NCBI GenBank assembly: GCA_002786025.1
Contig: NHNW01000066.1
Span: 1-64,000, forward strand
Direction of reading: 5' to 3'
Origin: Zasmidium citrigriseum
Taxonomy: Eukaryota > Ascomycota > Dothideomycetes > Mycosphaerellales > Mycosphaerellaceae
DNA length: 64,000 nt
Both the position numbers and the translations under genes were made by a program. The notes under the pieces were generated by a model. That model saw only the letters and a list, made by a program, of their open reading frames with translations. It was not told where the DNA came from and did no database searches. Positions 43,656 through 51,146 of this stretch are shown here, piece after piece. Each line of letters begins with the position of its first letter. Positions within the stretch are counted from its first letter, which is position 1.

Positions 43656-44709
43656 TCAGTCATCCAATTCCACCTCGGGACCGTTGCGAGCGCGCGGTGC
43701 GGTCGTCTCTCGAATCACCTCGCCCTCATCGTCCAGCTCGATGGTGACGATGTCGTTGTTCACGCGGGCCTTGCGGCGCTTGGTGCCGCCATCTTCGAGG
43801 TTGATATCCTCCTCGCGCTTGATCTTCACCTTGGCCTCTCTCTCTTGCTAAATCGATGTAAGCGACGCTGGGCGAGCTCTTTAGTGGCATGGAACATACC
43901 TGAGAAGCTTGAGAACGGCGAGCAAGCTCCACCAATTCCTCGCGGTTGAGAGTGTTCAGGTCACGCTCTTCAAGTGGCCGTGGGCTCGGGGCGCGGGGGA
44001 TGATCAATTCTGCTTGGAGGGCTTCCCTGGAGCGGTAATGGAAGATGTACGTCGCTACCGGTCTTGGGTCTATGCGTTGGATGTCGAAGGTAGGCTCGTC
44101 GGCTTCCCTGCAGCCCTGCACTGGGCCAAAGCTAGTCTGCCTGTCAGTGCTGTCTCCGCGAAACTTCGATTATCCAACCCACCCAACAGAGTGCGAAACT
44201 GCTTTGCCTTTCACGTCTTTCTCGGAGATGGCACCGAGCTCGAGTGGAGTGCCCGTCGACCTGGTGCTCTGGCCATAATTGACTCCATGATAAGCCTCAA
44301 TCTTGATGGTGCCCAGATCAGGAAACTGGGCCATGCGCTCCTTGTTGCTCTTGATGTCCTCTCGCTTGTCCAGCGTTCGGAACTGGTATTTCTGGATCTG
44401 TCCACCGGGAAGGAGGACGCCTCGGCTATGGTGCCATGACGCTTTGCGTTTGCCGACCTTCCAGACGAAAGGCGAGTCAGTGGCATTGCCATCGACAGTC
44501 ACATCGAAGCCTAGCGCGTCGCCGAGATAGCGGGTCTTTCTGCCGACGTCCATGTAGATTTCGAAGGTCTGTCCAGATTGGGCCTCGACGTAGCGCGTGA
44601 CGGTGTTGGCGGTGGCGTCTGGGGTCTCCGTGTCACGATATTCTGGAAGGTCTCTCTCGCCGGCGCGCACTGTGACTGAGACAGTGGGGAGCGAGATAGC
44701 TATCGCCAT
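43656..44709 (-). CDS. DUF7918-like protein, tandem copy A
   Basis: Three exons, 44183-44709, 43900-44107 and 43656-43847, giving 308 residues; introns 75 nt and 52 nt, phases exact. N-terminal domain: MAIAISLPTVSVTVRAGE, NTVTRYVEAQSGQTFEI, LGDALGFDVTVDGN, KYQFRTLDKRED, LGTIKIEAYHG and KAVSHSVG. After the conserved phase-2 splice comes ATYIFHYRSREALQAELIIP, then a Leu-rich helix and a tail with VKIKREE, a basic KRRKARV and VTIELDD. It is the most diverged of five tandem copies; it lacks the phase-1 intron found in the other four and has an extra ~25 residues after IELDD. Function unknown; nuclear by its basic patch (inference). Convergent with TatD, 125 nt apart. Confidence 0.85.
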
Positions 44710-45575
44710 TATGGATGTTCTGGCGGGGATAGGTGCGCAGGAGGAGGAGTCAAGAGGAAACTGCGGGAGCAGGCAGCTGGATCGCGAGCAAACGGCGGCT
44801 ACTCCCGCTGGAAAGAACGTCTTGATGAGGGAAGCTACGAGACGATGGATCCCAAAGAACCTCATCGTCCATCGACCTACGAAAGGCCAACTGGACGGCA
44901 TGGAATCATGCTTTTTCAGGGAGATCGCTCGCCCACTCAGGATCGGAATGAATCTTCGTATGGGACCTCTCAGGTCATCTCAACCTCCTTTCGCGGCTCA
45001 GTTGTGCCTTGCTTCGACGCCTCACGTCTTTTGGGTGAGTAGGAAGTCCATCAAGGACCACAGCTACGAGTGATTGATGAGCATGAGAGCTTGGTACTTC
45101 GAAATCTCCACGACTCTCCTTGCTCACCGGACGACCAGTCTCTGATTGCGATGCATGGAATCATACCAATTTCGTGGAGATCGTTCAATCGCCCGAGATT
45201 CGGAAAGCGACATCATCACCACCCGACAAGGAGGCCGTTGCCGTCTTCCCACTCCCAGTGTAGTTCAGCTCGATGGCCTCTGGCTTCTCCGCCCAAACCT
45301 GAGTTCCTCCTTTACATCATCAGACTGAGGCTCGAGTGTGTCAAGGACGGCAACTGTGAGCCCATATTCGACTTCGAGAGACCTGACGCTGCTAGATCTC
45401 GAAGAGTCTCGCCTTTGAATAAGTATCCAATCTATGACTGGACTGCATGAAGCTAGGCTACTTTCGTGGGAACCTCATGTCCCGGACCAGCCCACAGCAA
45501 TGGAGAGCACCGTCGCATGTATCATGTGAACCGCTGAAGCCAGGACACCATCGCCGCCTTCCCAGTCCGAGCCTC
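44710..45575. other. Spacer between copies A and B, with repeats and a gene relic
   Basis: About 865 bases. It holds two related segments (about 44898-44946 and 45153-45203) and a remnant of the 3' end of a further family member at about 45255-45330. A + frame of 126 codons here (45070-45450) lies antisense to the relic and is not supported as a gene. Confidence 0.6.
45255..45330 (-). pseudogene. Relic of the 3' end of a sixth DUF7918-like copy
   Basis: Read on the minus strand this stretch contains GATGATGTAAAGGAGGAA (DDVKEE), matching the DDVKEE of copy C, then a short basic segment (GRRSQ), then in another frame EAIELN, matching the terminal EVIELD/G of copies B, C and D. The DNA around the stop also resembles the 3' end of copy B at 45560-45600. 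Frames are broken and the rest of the gene is not recognisable. Confidence 0.6.
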
Positions 45576-46734
45576 CTAGTCAAGCTCAATGACCTCCGGC
45601 TCCTCAGCACGACCCAATGATGCTGTGGACGACTCTCGGAACGAGCCATCCTCGCCGATCTCCAGCTGAGTGTCGCCGGCGCTTGGACGGGAGACTTTGC
45701 GTGGGCGTGGGTTGTCATCGGTGCGCTCACGCTTGATCTTGCGCTTCGTGTCTTCGGCCTCCTGTGTACATTTGGTCAGACGATGAGTTGCAAACACATT
45801 GAAATCTAGCGTACCTTTGACTCTCTGGCACGACGGAGGAGCTCTTGAATGTCCTCGGGAGTCAGATCGGCCGCATCTTTCTCCTCCAGTGGGACAGGCT
45901 CTGGGGTACGGGGGATGATGAGCATGGCTTTGAGGGCCTCTGTGAAATGGGATTAGCGAGATGTGCTGAAGGCACAGCATGGCTGTACCTACCATTCGAG
46001 CGATATCGGAAGAGGAAGGTGGCCGCCGGGCGATGTAGCCCACCGTCGAGGTATGTCATCGATCTGCTCGTTGAGGCTCCGCTCGCGACGGTGGCTCCAT
46101 GCCTTGCCATGATGGTCAGCTAAGGTTTCAACTTTCATCGGACTTGAACCTCTTACCCAACACTGTGGGACAGAGCTCGCCCCTTCAGCGCTTTCTCAGA
46201 CATCAATCCCGTTTCGGACGGCTTGCTTGTCCAGATCTCGCGTCTCACTTGTGGGCCCTGCTGCGTGTGGAAGACCTCGACCTTCAAGACTCCCATTTCT
46301 TCGATCTTACGAGACTCCTCGCTGGTCTTGCGCCCATCTGAGACTGGATAGGTCAGCATTTGCTTGGCTCCAAATGGTCTTTGTGAGGACTCACTGGTTT
46401 CTAGTTCGCTGAAGCGAAACTTCGTTACGGTCTGGCGGTTGTCGTAGCCGAAACACTCCATCTCTCCGCCATTCCTAGTCTCATAAGTGTTGAAATATCT
46501 GAAGAGAGCCAGGAAACCATCCGCATAGAAGCGAAGTGTGAGCGTGTCGCCTGGAAAGTTGCTACCTCCAGCCAACTTAACCTTGATGAGGAAGTCCTTG
46601 CCCGACTGGGCCTCGATGTAGCGAATGGCTGTCTTATTGGATACCTCCTCGTCACTATCCTCGTACTCCTTGAGTGCGACGCCGTCGACTTGGACAGTGA
46701 CCTCAACGCCTGGCAACTCATCGATGACCGCCAT
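45576..46734 (-). CDS. DUF7918-like protein, tandem copy B
   Basis: Five exons, 46395-46734, 46157-46337, 45993-46102, 45815-45939 and 45576-45761, giving 313 residues with all phases consistent. N-terminal domain: AVIDELPGVEVTVQVDG, TAIRYIEAQSGKDFLIKV, FPGDTLTLRFYADG, VTKFRFSELET, EMGVLKVEVFHTQQG, RALSHSVG. Second part: ATFLFRYRSNEALKAMLIIP, PEDIQELLRRARESK. Tail: KIKRERTDDNPRPRKVSRP and, at the very end, EPEVIELD. It carries the full set of four introns seen in the family (phases 1, 2, 1, 0), like copy D, so it probably keeps the ancestral structure. Unknown function. Single stops inside each intron make the unspliced frames short. Confidence 0.87.
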
Positions 46735-47124
46735 CTTCGTGTCTTGCTTGTTGTGTCTCGGCGGCGCTACGGAGTGCGGTGCGGATGATATGACGCAAAA
46801 GTGGTACCTGCGGAGCGAAGGTGAGGTGGTGAAGAGGAAGAAGAAGAACGGGCTTATGAAGTTGCCAAATTTGAGACACGCACGGATCGCGCTGCAGCTG
46901 CGTGTTTGCATGTGAACTTCTGCCTAGGAAAGTGAAGCCAGGGTCCAAGCACGTGGAAAGAGTGAAGTTTGGAAAGTACGTTCTGGAATCTCAACTAAAG
47001 TACTATCACGTGTGCATCTCTCAGAGTCCATAATCTTCCTATTCCAGTCCGAGGTTTGGAGATATCTTCGTGGTTGCTCATATACAATAGTTCTCATCGT
47101 CTGAGAATCCTGTTTTCCCGCCAC
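46735..47124. other. Spacer between copies B and C
   Basis: 390 bases, probably the copy B promoter plus the copy C 3' flank. A CACGTG motif (atcacgtgtg) lies near 47010. No gene. Confidence 0.45.
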
Positions 47125-48048
47125 TCAGCCCAACTCAATCACCTCACTTCTCTGAGCTTGGCGTGGAGCCTTCTTTGGGCGAGGATTCTCATCCTGCTCC
47201 TCCTTCACATCGTCCTGGACGAGCGAGGCTTCCTCTCCCTTCTCAGGCTGTGGAGATGGCGAACGTGGGAGAATGTACGCCGCCTGCAGCGCCTTCCGGG
47301 ATCGATAAAAGAACTTGTAGACTGCGATGGGATCTTCACTCTCCAGCTCGACATTCACCTTTGCGCGCGTGCTGCGAGAGATCGCCTTCTCTCCGAAACT
47401 AGCAATTCGTCAGCAGGCTTTCATGCATGTCAATGGCTTGGTCCCTGACCGGACTGTGTGGGATAGAGTCGTCCCCTTGATCAGCTCCTCGGCAATGCTC
47501 TCTGGCATCACTGGCAGCGCTTTGCCGAGGAAAGGCTCCTCGGCCTTGGTGACGCTCTTCATCACGAACACTTTTACTTCAACAGTACCCAGATCTCCGA
47601 GATTGATCTCTCCGTCCGTGGCACCGTCATCGTCTACGATGGTTCGAGAGGCGGTCAGCTTTCTGGAGATCGTGTCAGGGCATTGGAACGTACCTGTCTT
47701 GAGGGCGCTGAACTTGTAGGGCAAGTACTTCCGCTTGCTGCCTACCTTCACCGGCCAGCCTCGAAAGCGGCCGTATGATATCTTTCCACCTGCAACTTTG
47801 CGAGGCTCAACGGCGAGCCTTCCGGTCGTGAGGCCGTCAACGGAGGCAACGTAGAGCAAGCCTGCTCCTCGCATTGCATCAGGCTGTGTCGTAAGGCTGA
47901 TCTTGAAGGTCTGATCGGACTTCACTTCGATGAAGCGTGAGATAGTATTCGTGTCGTCTGTGAAAGTGGTATCGTGTATCTCGGCTACAGCCTGATGGTC
48001 GGCTCTGATGGTCACTTCCACCCCGGGAAGGCTGTCGAGGATCGCCAT
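47125..48048 (-). CDS. DUF7918-like protein, tandem copy C
   Basis: Three exons, 47694-48048, 47450-47633 and 47125-47398, giving 270 residues; introns 60 nt and 51 nt, phases 1 and 2 as in the other copies. N-terminal domain: AILDSLPGVEVTIRADH, NTISRFIEVKSDQTFKI, LPYKFSALKT, LGDLGTVEVKVFVMK, TTLSHTVR. Second part: AVYKFFYRSRKALQAAYILP. Tail: DDVKEEQDENPRPKKAP and final RSEVIELG. It is the shortest copy: the helix and the phase-0 intron before the tail are missing, so exon 3 runs straight from the YRS motif to the stop. The tail motifs survive the shortening. Confidence 0.87.
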
Positions 48049-48627
48049 TTTGCTGTGTATATATTTGATCGAGGAATTGGATTACACGGAGTGGTGTGGA
48101 AGGTGTCGATGATCGGATGTTGATGTTGAGAAGACGAAGCAAAGGTTGCGAAGAGAGAACTTAAGTATGGCGGACATCTCACAGAAGAAAGACTGAGGAG
48201 AATCTTCAGATGCTCCGACGAATCTTCTGAGGGCTTCACTTCCCGTCACACGCTCCGAGAAACTGGGAATTCGAACAATGGGCACAGACAATGGGAAGAT
48301 TCCTCAAATATCTGGTCAGACTGCCAGGACATGCATCTTCTTCCAAATCGATAACAGCAATGGAACAGCCTCTTCCTTTTGGTCACAAACTCCAGTGCTG
48401 GTCTTGGGGTAGAAAGGACACTAGCTTTTTGTATATCAATCTATTTGCTGATGTCGTCTATACGAACGCTTTTGTGATTGCAAAACCAACAGCTTTTCAT
48501 GAACGCTCCCTTGCCCAAATGTACCTCAGTCTCATGATCGTACATCAGACTGCTTGTTAACACAAGGCTTGAAGGATAATGGTATTTCACCGGCGCCGAA
48601 ACCCCGAGATTGACTGGCCTGACAAGC
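48049..48627. other. Spacer between copies C and D
   Basis: About 580 bases. TATA-like gtgtatatatttg at about 48053-48065, immediately upstream of the copy C ATG. No gene. Confidence 0.45.
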
Positions 48628-49721
48628 TCAATCCAACTCAATGACCTCCGAATGGCTGGATGGGCGAGTGCGCTTTCTGGGACGCGGATTCTCGTCACGT
48701 TCTTCCTGCTTGATCTTCTCGAACGCTTTCAGCTTCTCCTACATAATGTCAGCTGCCGCTCAGGGAGTGATAATGCTTTGTGCCAGACCTTCGTCTCCTT
48801 CAACTCCCTCAGCGCCTCAGTGATCTTGGCAACATTGCCTGAAAAGGTGGTAGCATCTTGATCTTCGAGTGGTGGAGGAGAGGGCGTGCGTGGGATGATG
48901 TCCATTAACTTGAGCGAGTCTATGCCCTGGTCAATCTGCTATTCAGCAGCTCACAGTGATGCTTGCTTACCCAAGGAGCGGTAGTGGAACTTGAAGGTGG
49001 CGATAGGCTGATCGCTAGCTTTCTCGACACTCATGATCAAGTCCGATATGGTGTTGTCGACCGGGTCTCCTACCCTAGTACACATCAGATGTGGAATTCT
49101 GACCAAAGGGAGTCTCTGAAATACCCAACGGTAAGAGATACAGCTCTTGCATAAACCGCCTTCTTCGAGATCTTTTCGACTGCATTACGAAAATCGCAGT
49201 CGTCAGGTGGTCCTTTTGAGACCACAGCCTTGGACAAATGGTAGACCCGTATCTCGATGGCGCCAATTCTGTCGAATATCTCGTCGGCTTCTTTCATTCG
49301 GCTTCGATCTCGGGATGCACAGTCAGTATGAGCTTGACAACTCTCTTCCGTAGGCTGTAGATGACTCACCAATCACGGACTCGCCGAATATGTACGGGGC
49401 ATGTGCTCCAATGGAGTTCTTTCTCGTATACCAACCCTTGCTAATCCAGACCTTGCGCTTGCCGTTGCAGTGTTCAGATGTGACCACCTCGTGGTCGGCA
49501 TCATTCGCGTCTATTGATATGACATGCTTGAAGCCAGCACCACGAGTAGATCCTGCTTCGCCGACAACCTTGACTGCGAATGTCCGACCAACTTGAGCTT
49601 CAATGTAGCGGGTGATGGTATTTGACTGGTCGACAAGGTCCTCCTTCACGTGCTCTTGGAGTGGCTGTCCATCAACCGTGACGGTGACCTCAACTCCAGG
49701 GAGGCTGTCGAGAATGGCCAT
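48628..49721 (-). CDS. DUF7918-like protein, tandem copy D
   Basis: Five exons, 49370-49721, 49125-49308, 48971-49074, 48789-48919 and 48628-48738, giving 293 residues; phases 1, 2, 1, 0 as in copy B. Two donors are weak (GTATTT at 49124 and GTCTGG at 48788), but the frame and family match support them. N-terminal domain: AILDSLPGVEVTVTVDGQ, NTITRYIEAQVGRTFAV, IGAIEIRVYHLSK, RAVSLTVG. Second part: ATFKFHYRSLDSLKLMDIIP and KITEALRELKETK. Tail: KIKQEERDENPRPRKRTRP and final HSEVIELD. Its ATG context and first eleven residues are identical to copy C, suggesting recent duplication or conversion at the 5' end. Confidence 0.85.
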
Positions 49722-50122
49722 GCTGTCGGTGTGATTGGTCCTGGATCGGAAGGTGGAAGTGTATCGGTTATGTGTGTTAATTCTGTAGAGAAGTTGTTGT
49801 TGTTGGGTGAAGGTGTTGTTTGAAAGGAAGGAAGCGAGAAGAGGGGATTAAATAGGCTGGCACCTGCAGGCGCTCATACGAGAGACTTACCTCAGCTACG
49901 CGCATGTTTGCATGTGAAGAAAACACGAGGATGAAAGTTCGAAGACTCACATGCTTCCTCCGGTGTTCAAGGTCTCCAAGCCCCTCAAGTCAAGCTCTCA
50001 ACCAGTCCTGGGCAAAAAGACTGACGATCTGCTCGGCGCATGTGCAAAGATCACCACATTCAAGCCGCTCACAACCAAAACCTTTCCCGGCAGAGACGCC
50101 CATGCTGTAGCCAAATCAACTT
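49722..50122. other. Spacer between copies D and E
   Basis: 400 bases; a short GTT repeat at about 49792-49806. Promoter of copy D expected. No gene. Confidence 0.45.
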
Positions 50123-51146
50123 CTACTCCAAAACAATGACCTCGATCTGGCTATCGCGCCGAGCACGCTTCCGTGGCCGAGCCTCCTCCTCAGCCTCCTT
50201 CTTGACCTTCGCGGCGTTCGCCTTCTCCTCCTACAGGTCGGATCAGTTCTGTCCAGTCGAGTCTCCGACCATGTCACTTACCTCCAAGTCGCGGACTCTC
50301 TGCTGCAGCTTTTGGACCTCGTCTTCGGTCAGCGTAGTATGGTCCCGAAGCTCGAGGGGCTCAGGAGAGGGGGAGCGTGGGACAAGGCTCAAAGCCTTCA
50401 GGGCTTGCAGCGATCGATAGCGGAAGCGGAACGTGGCCAACGGGATGTCAGATGCCGTTTCTGCGTATACGCTATGCTCTGGCAATTGACTCTTCGTAGC
50501 CCTGTCGTAGCTGTTCCAACGTCAGTCATAGGCTCTGATCAGTCCTGGCTTGCTCTGCTGCATACCTGACGCTATGAGAGAGCGTACCACCCTTCGAGTC
50601 CTTCTCCGCAATGCTGGTGACGATGCTTGGGCGCTCAACGTAGTCTTCGTACCAGAAGGGAAATTGCTCCGCCAGCGACATCACAAAGGCCTCGACAGTA
50701 ATCATCCCAAGATCTTGAAGTTCTTCCTTCTCCTCGTCCGTCGCCTGGGGTCGCTCGACTATTCTTGATTAGCGTCGCAACTCATGGCCCCCAAAAGAAG
50801 ACTCACCGGTATCGAGAGTCCCGAATCTATATTTGCGAATCTTGCCTGCATGCGCACGAGCCCCTACCGTGTCCCAAGTCTCATCGGACTTCTTGGGCCA
50901 GTACTGAATGCCTCTGGCGGTGACATTTCCGTCGATGGACACCTTGTATCCCACTCCGATGCCGCCGTAGTCAGTACCTTTCGCTGTTCGGCAGTATATC
51001 TTGAACTGCTTGCCGGTCTCGGCCTCGATGTATCGAGTCAAAACCTTCTCGAGGTCTGGAGTGGACTCGTCCTGGTACTCGAGAAGCTTGGAGCCACCCA
51101 CGAGGACCGTGACCTCGATACCTGGAACAGAGTCGAGGATAGCCAT
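50123..51146 (-). CDS. DUF7918-like protein, tandem copy E
   Basis: Four exons, 50807-51146, 50566-50758, 50282-50510 and 50123-50230, giving 289 residues; introns at the family's phase-1, phase-2 and phase-0 sites, without the third (YRS) intron. N-terminal domain: AILDSVPGIEVTVLVGG, VLTRYIEAETGKQFKI, IRKYRFGTLDT, LGMITVEAFVMSLAE, GTLSHSVR. Second part: ATFRFRYRSLQALKALSLVP, DEVQKLQQRVRDLE. Tail: KVKKEAEEEARPRKRARR and final IEVIVLE, where the VIEL of the other copies becomes VIVL. Last gene of the array; unknown function. Confidence 0.87.

What the first reader, a model, noticed from the sequence alone, without database searches (positions are those of the whole stretch)
43656..51146. Conserved SUMO-like tail (psi-K-x-E, basic patch, terminal VIEL-acidic) in five tandem paralogues
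Once spliced, all five minus-strand paralogues end with the same arrangement despite wide divergence elsewhere. Each has a psi-K-x-E (IKRE in A, IKRE in B, VKEE in C, IKQE in D, VKKE in E). A basic patch follows (DDNPRPRK, DENPRPKK, DENPRPRK, ARPRKRAR; KRRKARV in A). Near or at the C-terminus is a short hydrophobic-acidic string (EVIELD in B and D, EVIELG in C, EVIVLE in E, VTIELDD in A). Psi-K-x-E is the SUMO-acceptor consensus and V/I-x-V/I-L next to acidic residues is the SUMO-interaction consensus, so each protein could be both SUMO target and SUMO reader in the nucleus. The motifs are directly visible; their function is inferred. The short copy C kept the tail while losing the linker, which argues for selection on it.
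Basis: partly seen in the sequence, partly recalled or inferred. Interest (0 to 1): 0.78.

Follow-up and report, generated by a model that had tools for sequence, protein, structure and literature searches.

The report
Conserved SUMO-binding tail on fungal proteins
Five neighbouring fungal genes of unknown function end in the same short tail, which looks like both an attachment site and a docking site for the small protein tag SUMO, and because related fungi keep that tail it gives a first testable clue to what this protein family does.

Summary
All five spliced minus-strand genes carry psi-K-x-E, then a basic patch, then a hydrophobic-acidic end. They are DUF7918 (PF25534) proteins. The tail also occurs well outside this array. 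I tested 60 DUF7918 proteins with a C-terminus, reduced to 37 at 50% identity (6 of them from this genome). psi-K-x-E occurs in 34 of 37 (shuffle mean 4.4) and 49 of 53 psi residues are V or I. The last 8 residues hold DL[TSC] in 26 of 37 (shuffle mean 0.2), 15 of these with the full hhDL core of a SUMO-interacting motif; window copies carry a derived form, VIELD. The array is old, and the genome has a SUMO gene. Best reading: nuclear proteins that are SUMO-modified and read SUMO through one tail, joined to a beta-sandwich domain of unknown ligand. No SUMO biochemistry could be done. In this genome 6 of 10 DUF7918 loci have the tail. The parts are known kinds; no paper in the library searched names the family.

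The parts
50123..51146 (-). gene E, DUF7918 protein, 289 aa, 4 exons (51146-50807, 50758-50566, 50510-50282, 50230-50123)
   Evidence: spliced model; Pfam PF25534 E 1.3e-41
48628..49721 (-). gene D, DUF7918 protein, 293 aa, 5 exons (49721-49370, 49308-49125, 49074-48971, 48919-48789, 48738-48628)
   Evidence: PF25534 E 1e-33
47125..48048 (-). gene C, DUF7918 protein, 270 aa, 3 exons (48048-47694, 47633-47450, 47398-47125); helical linker missing, tail kept
   Evidence: PF25534 E 5.7e-37
45576..46734 (-). gene B, DUF7918 protein, 315 aa, 5 exons (46734-46395, 46343-46157, 46102-45993, 45939-45815, 45761-45576)
   Evidence: PF25534 E 1.7e-50
43656..44709 (-). gene A, DUF7918 protein, 316 aa, 3 exons (44709-44183, 44131-43900, 43847-43656)
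   Evidence: PF25534 E 1.2e-43
50195..50206 (-). psi-K-x-E of E: VKKE (aa 263-266)
48703..48714 (-). psi-K-x-E of D: IKQE (aa 266-269)
47197..47208 (-). psi-K-x-E of C: VKEE (aa 244-247)
45726..45737 (-). psi-K-x-E of B: IKRE (aa 263-266)
43812..43823 (-). psi-K-x-E of A: IKRE (aa 262-265)
50159..50179 (-). basic patch of E: RPRKRAR
48664..48684 (-). basic patch of D: RPRKRTR
47161..47181 (-). basic patch of C: RPKKAPR
45687..45707 (-). basic patch of B: RPRKVSR
43764..43781 (-). basic patch of A: KRRKAR
50126..50143 (-). terminal SIM candidate of E: EVIVLE
   Evidence: core VIVL
48631..48648 (-). terminal SIM candidate of D: EVIELD
   Evidence: core VIEL (hhXh)
47128..47145 (-). terminal SIM candidate of C: EVIELG
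   Evidence: core VIEL, ends in G
45579..45596 (-). terminal SIM candidate of B: EVIELD
   Evidence: core VIEL
43659..43676 (-). exact C-terminus of A: EVELDD, degenerate (fails hhXh)
43728..43748 (-). internal element of A: VTIELDD (with the preceding I gives IVTI, hhXh, followed by ELDD)
45648..45668 (-). internal element of B: QLEIGED, aligned with A's internal element; does not match hhXh or hXhh
45229..45292 (-). decayed duplicate of the 3' end of gene B (tail plus 3' flank) between A and B
   Evidence: local alignment score 41; 300 shuffles mean 19.6, max 29

Best explanation
The five genes encode nuclear DUF7918 proteins: an N-terminal beta-sandwich (about residues 1-235), a helix (missing in C), and a C-terminal tail that works as a SUMO module. 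The lysine in the conserved [VI]-K-x-E is a SUMO acceptor. The basic patch behind it is a nuclear localisation signal. The last residues (DL[TSC] endings, most often hhDLT, in most relatives; VIELD-like in the window copies) are a SUMO-interacting motif that docks in the groove of SUMO. The motif can raise SUMOylation of the lysine in cis and can hold the protein to SUMOylated partners, or to SUMOylated copies of its own family, so the variable domain is brought to SUMO-rich nuclear sites. Shown: gene models, the motifs, their conservation beyond chance, the age of the paralogues, a SUMO gene in the genome. Inferred: nuclear location, SUMO conjugation, SUMO binding, cis enhancement, partner recruitment.
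For: psi-K-x-E in 34 of 37 non-redundant proteins against 4.4 in shuffles (database members alone: 28 of 31); two of three permuted motifs in 2 of 37 each, the third in 10 of 37, 9 of these being psi-K-x-E sites themselves. 49 of 53 psi are V/I although V+I are only 53.5% of V/I/L/M/F in these tails (binomial p 7.5e-10), and 5 of 53 have P at x, which a helix would not favour. DL[TSC] in the last 8 residues in 26 of 37 against 0.2; hhXh in the last 10 in 24 of 37 against 1.3. Conservation percentiles in 11 clade-I sequences: K 89, E 93, V 88, I 81, L 87; in 27 other homologues psi 86, K 87, terminal D 100, L 96, T 90. Window copies A-E lie on end branches of 1.04-1.29 changes per site; B groups with Meristemomyces proteins (96/83), C-E with Zasmidium P0001 (85/93, a fork the tool leaves open), so the tail outlived old divergences. 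In AlphaFold models of two homologues the tail has no secondary structure and low confidence, as SIMs usually do (PMC12751080 passages). That review says the fourth core residue of a parallel SIM is almost invariably hydrophobic, especially L, I or V; here it is L in 27 of 27 other homologues, and L in 10 and M in 1 of 11 clade-I sequences. The genome encodes SUMO, whose groove segment FFKIKRTTQLKKL aligns with Smt3 FFKIKKTTPLRRL. Of 17 genome matches to the DNA pattern for [VIM][VIM]DL[TS]xx-stop, only the one in the sixth DUF7918 gene ends an open frame of more than 36 codons.
Against: No conjugation or binding data. The acceptor lysine falls near the end of a predicted helix (K283 in P0001, helix 259-286; K263 in P0010, helix 242-267), which may hinder access of the E2. 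Gene A's terminus lost the hhXh core; C ends in G. Ten of 37 relatives have T, C or W instead of the first aliphatic residue. In clade I the psi column is only at the 53rd percentile, and in the 27 others the E column facing the sixth gene's site is only at the 58th, where the alignment spreads the sites. The homologue set came from full-length queries and may favour tailed members; of 10 DUF7918 loci in this genome 6 have the tail and 4 do not. The terminal DNA pattern is not enriched genome-wide: 17 matches against 27 for the pattern read backwards.
Confidence: 0.7

Rival explanations
1. The terminus is a SUMO-interacting motif, but psi-K-x-E is not a SUMO acceptor: it is the charged end of the helix and part of the nuclear localisation signal. 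The proteins read SUMO without being modified.
For: The lysine lies near the end of the predicted helix in both homologue models and close to basic residues; that consensus sites are not always used is general knowledge.
Against: V/I instead of L before K in 49 of 53 cases, P at x in 5 of 53 and the rarity of two of three permuted motifs fit the SUMO consensus better than helix chemistry; some relatives have two or more such sites.
Confidence: 0.15
2. The tail is a plain nuclear localisation signal with an acidic-hydrophobic end that binds something other than SUMO, for example a transcription or repair factor that takes acidic-hydrophobic peptides.
For: The basic patch [KR][KR].?[KR] is as regular as the rest: 35 of 37 against 15.8 in shuffles. 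Acidic-hydrophobic peptides have many possible partners (general knowledge).
Against: The terminal D-L is invariant in 27 of 27 homologues outside the window clade and the hhXh core fits the SIM consensus, and the SUMO acceptor consensus is conserved in the same tail.
Confidence: 0.08
3. In the window clade the terminus is a carboxylate-clamp ligand for TPR co-chaperones, like the EEVD end of Hsp70, since it mostly ends in L/M-D-COOH.
For: 9 of 11 clade-I sequences end in D; the yeast Hsp70 Ssa1 motif TVEEVD is also described as a SIM (PMC8616421 passages), so both can coincide. That EEVD is a TPR ligand is recalled.
Against: C ends in G and E in E; the other relatives end variably (for example ED, DF, DA, GT, S) while D-L stays fixed.
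Confidence: 0.03
4. The motifs are chance or shared ancestry without function: duplicates with a charge-rich tail.
For: The tail is rich in K, R, E, D, so single motifs arise often: about 12% of shuffled tails hold psi-K-x-E (4.4 of 37).
Against: The shuffle controls and retention over branches above one change per site.
Confidence: 0.04

Closest known systems
DUF7918 (Pfam PF25534)
   Same: All five proteins exceed the Pfam cut-off over the full domain.
   Different: The Pfam match stops before the tail; no paper in the library searched names the family or its accession.
Daxx (C-terminal SIM2 plus SUMOylation sites plus NLS)
   Same: SIM at the C-terminus binding in parallel orientation, SUMO-modified lysines K630/K631, NLS; SIM needed for efficient SUMOylation (PMC12295420 and PMC12751080, passages seen).
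   Different: No sequence comparison with Daxx was made; Daxx is a histone chaperone with a second, N-terminal SIM; the domain here is a predicted beta-sandwich of unknown role.
PIAS / RNF4 type SIMs
   Same: Same hhXh core type (PIASX SIM is called hhXh in PMC8616421, passage seen); here often with D-L-T and trailing acidic residues. The exact PIAS and RNF4 letters are recalled.
   Different: Those proteins are SUMO or ubiquitin ligases with RING-type domains (recalled); hmmscan of the five window proteins found no Pfam family above cut-off other than DUF7918.
TEAD YAP-binding domain / RhoGDI Ig-like sandwiches

Membership tests
DUF7918 (PF25534) | whole-protein Pfam score above the curated cut-off of 27 bits | tested here: met
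   5 of 5: 150.2, 172.6, 128.4, 117.7, 143.6 bits
SUMO-interacting motif | hhXh or hXhh aliphatic core | tested here: met
   terminus of B, C, D, E met; terminus of A not met, but A has internal IVTI
SUMO-interacting motif | acidic or phosphorylatable residues beside the core | tested here: met
   E before and D/E after the core in B, D, E; C has E before and G after; A's internal IVTI is followed by ELDD
SUMO-interacting motif | lies in a disordered region | tested here: met
   no secondary structure and low pLDDT in the tails of the homologues P0001 and P0010; the window proteins themselves were not modelled
SUMO-interacting motif | binds SUMO, lost on core mutation | not testable with these tools
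   needs a pull-down or NMR
SUMO substrate | psi-K-x-E consensus | tested here: met
   5 of 5 window proteins; 34 of 37 non-redundant set
SUMO substrate | covalent SUMO on that lysine | not testable with these tools
   needs immunoblot or mass spectrometry
Host has a SUMO pathway | SUMO gene in the genome | tested here: met
   C2:447639-447797; its open piece matches yeast Smt3 at 1.4e-20; E1, E2 and proteases were not searched
Nuclear protein | basic cluster [KR][KR].?[KR] | tested here: met
   35 of 37 against 15.8 in shuffles; localisation itself untested
TEAD-YBD / RhoGDI-like fold | significant fold match | tested here: inconclusive

The most novel reading that the evidence does not exclude
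DUF7918 is a fungal family of SUMO-network scaffolds, a counterpart in role (not descent) to PML-body proteins such as Daxx: each tailed member is modified on [VI]KxE and carries a SIM, so copies can link to one another and to SUMOylated chromatin proteins, while the tandem array diversifies the sandwich domain that picks the cargo and keeps one shared SUMO plug.
Probability: 0.2. Interest if true: 0.8.

Novelty: new member of a known kind. Interest (0 to 1): 0.6.

Why it matters
Pfam calls DUF7918 a domain of unknown function, and no paper in the library searched names it. A conserved acceptor-plus-SIM tail gives the family a concrete hypothesis that a two-hybrid or pull-down can test. SIMs are described as fast-evolving motifs (section heading and passage of PMC12751080), so a SIM-like ending kept at the same place in homologues from five classes of Ascomycota (species looked up), and kept in a copy that lost its linker, is unusual and useful for studying how such motifs are held and how they drift (VVDLTDD to VIELD).

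Tried and rejected

Ascertainment: homologues come from three searches (9, 33 and 18 rows, 58 distinct proteins); two of these scored only the candidates sharing most words. P0009, P0041, P0057 and P0058 were dropped for lacking a C-terminus. P0043 was in the set of 60 (it ends differently from P0029 of the same species) but not in the 37. P0043, P0004 and P0054 were left out of the tree, and one more row fell below 120 domain residues.
Full report
What is there. The window lies in a 44.4-Mb genome whose DUF7918 genes have fungal relatives: the best hits are from Zasmidium and Meristemomyces, both Mycosphaerellales, Dothideomycetes. On the minus strand five genes stand head to tail between a TatD-type DNase gene and a glutaminase gene. 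I rebuilt their splicing: all introns are GT..AG, 48 to 61 bases long, and every frame runs open to the stop. All five are DUF7918 (PF25534) proteins with 117 to 173 bits against a cut-off of 27. B-E are 32-36% identical to gene A.

The tail. In every one the order is psi-K-x-E, basic patch, hydrophobic-acidic string. In A, B, D and E the tail starts in its own last exon behind a phase-0 intron; C lacks that intron and the helix before it, yet keeps the tail.

Is it more than chance? A genome search with the Pfam model gave 11 matches at 10 loci: the five window genes, a sixth tailed gene on contig C116 ending IKRE ... SKRQR ... VEVVDLTDD, and four loci without this tail (C119:174336, C119:120454, C77 and a weak match in a low-complexity frame on C83). 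Three protein searches gave 58 homologues, 54 of them with a C-terminus (sequences). With the six own proteins this makes 60, or 37 at 50% identity. psi-K-x-E occurs in 57 of 60 and in 34 of 37 (shuffle mean 4.4; none of 400 shuffles reached it); in database members alone 28 of 31. The permuted motifs E-x-K-psi and K-psi-x-E occur in 2 of 37 each, and K-x-E-psi in 10 of 37 (shuffle mean 4.4), 9 of these being also psi-K-x-E. In the tails 49 of the 53 psi residues are V or I; 5 of the 53 have proline at x. DL[TSC] occurs in the last eight residues of 26 of 37 (shuffle mean 0.2; database members 25 of 31), 15 of the 26 with two aliphatic residues before D and 10 ending DL[TSC][DE]D. The 37 termini fall into hhDL[TSCL] (16), [TCW][VI]DL[TS] (10), another hhXh (9) and neither (2, gene A and P0046). 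Missing psi-K-x-E: P0028 (IKSD), P0034 and P0054.

Conservation. In 11 sequences of the window clade K, E and the terminal V, I, L, D stand at the 89th, 93rd, 88th, 81st, 87th and 81st percentile of all columns; psi stands only at the 53rd. In 27 other homologues psi and K stand at the 86th and 87th, the E column at only the 58th (the sites are spread by the alignment), and the terminal D, L, T at the 100th, 96th and 90th.

Age. A domain-only tree of 56 proteins puts the five window proteins in one supported clade of 12 (98/97). Within it B sits with Meristemomyces proteins (96/83), and C, D, E sit with Zasmidium P0001 (85/93, left open by the tool); A's place is open. The sixth gene sits with other Zasmidium proteins (100/99). 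The nearest outside row, P0050 from the Leotiomycete Acephala, ends TVDLTEDSD (97/95). At least B's split is therefore older than the split of these families. The canonical DLT ending is probably ancestral and VIELD derived; that direction is inferred, since the root was set at the midpoint.

Structure and pathway. AlphaFold models of P0001 and P0010, made from 43 homologues each, have mean pLDDT 85.3 and 83.4: a beta-sandwich, a 26-28 residue helix, then a tail without structure. Fold searches gave only middling matches to Ig-like sandwiches, TEAD and RhoGDI among them in both models. The genome has a SUMO gene whose open piece matches yeast Smt3. The terminal DNA pattern is rare: 17 genome matches (27 for the pattern read backwards), 13 of them with a real stop, and only the sixth DUF7918 gene ends an open frame longer than 36 codons. 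That search saw only CTN leucine codons and exactly two residues after the T/S.

How it most likely works. The SUMO acceptor consensus and the hhXh/hXhh SIM consensus are as given in PMC8616421 (passages). In a parallel SIM the fourth core residue is nearly always hydrophobic, and SIMs in a substrate often raise its own SUMOylation (PMC12751080 passages). The near-invariant L followed by acidic residues fits a parallel SIM. I conclude that the tail is an acceptor-plus-reader module on a nuclear protein. The steps shown are sequence-level; conjugation, binding and nuclear location are inferred.

Limits. No wet evidence exists here. The acceptor lysine sits near a predicted helix end. The searches used full-length queries, and the same genome holds a DUF7918 protein with no tail (L009, ends with the domain) and one whose domain is followed by a weak PHD-finger match (L012), so the tail is common in the family but not universal.

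Noticed in passing
45229-45292, minus strand: A decayed duplicate of gene B's 3' end (tail and 3' flank) lies between A and B, so the array once held or partly copied another unit.
   Followed up: partly
L012:640-1584 (+): A DUF7918-type N-terminus (30 bits) followed by a C-terminal PHD-finger-like zinc motif (17.9 bits, below the Pfam cut-off), which would link this domain to chromatin.
   Followed up: partly
L009:504-1241 (-): A DUF7918 paralogue read as one open frame that ends with the domain and has no tail.
   Followed up: partly
L010 (C77:140000-142600), minus strand: A divergent 599-aa DUF7918 protein, joined by hand from two exons, with VKRE and the ending VKQEDSDEEL.
   Followed up: no
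genes A, B, D, E: last exons 43847-43656, 45761-45576, 48738-48628, 50230-50123: The tail starts in its own terminal exon behind a phase-0 intron in four of five genes.
   Followed up: no
end of the DUF7918 domain, e.g. D residues 223-232: A strongly conserved P-R-[STA]-P-x-P-x-P-L-E stretch with S/T-P sites; P is invariant at four places in 11 clade-I sequences. Possible phosphorylation sites.
   Followed up: no
tails of 12 of 37 homologues, gene A included: A second hhXh/hXhh element inside the tail (12 of 37 against 4.1 in shuffles), possibly giving two SIMs.
   Followed up: partly
P0037: A DUF7918 protein with the fungal tail is filed under the oak Quercus suber; possibly fungal contamination.
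   Followed up: no
P0043 versus P0029: Two Zymoseptoria tritici records of a very similar protein differ most near the end (and over a missing middle stretch); one lacks the SIM, possibly a gene-model difference.
   Followed up: no
AlphaFold models of P0001 and P0010: Both models rank the TEAD YAP-binding domain and RhoGDI among their best matches over most of the domain, below the level of proof.
   Followed up: partly
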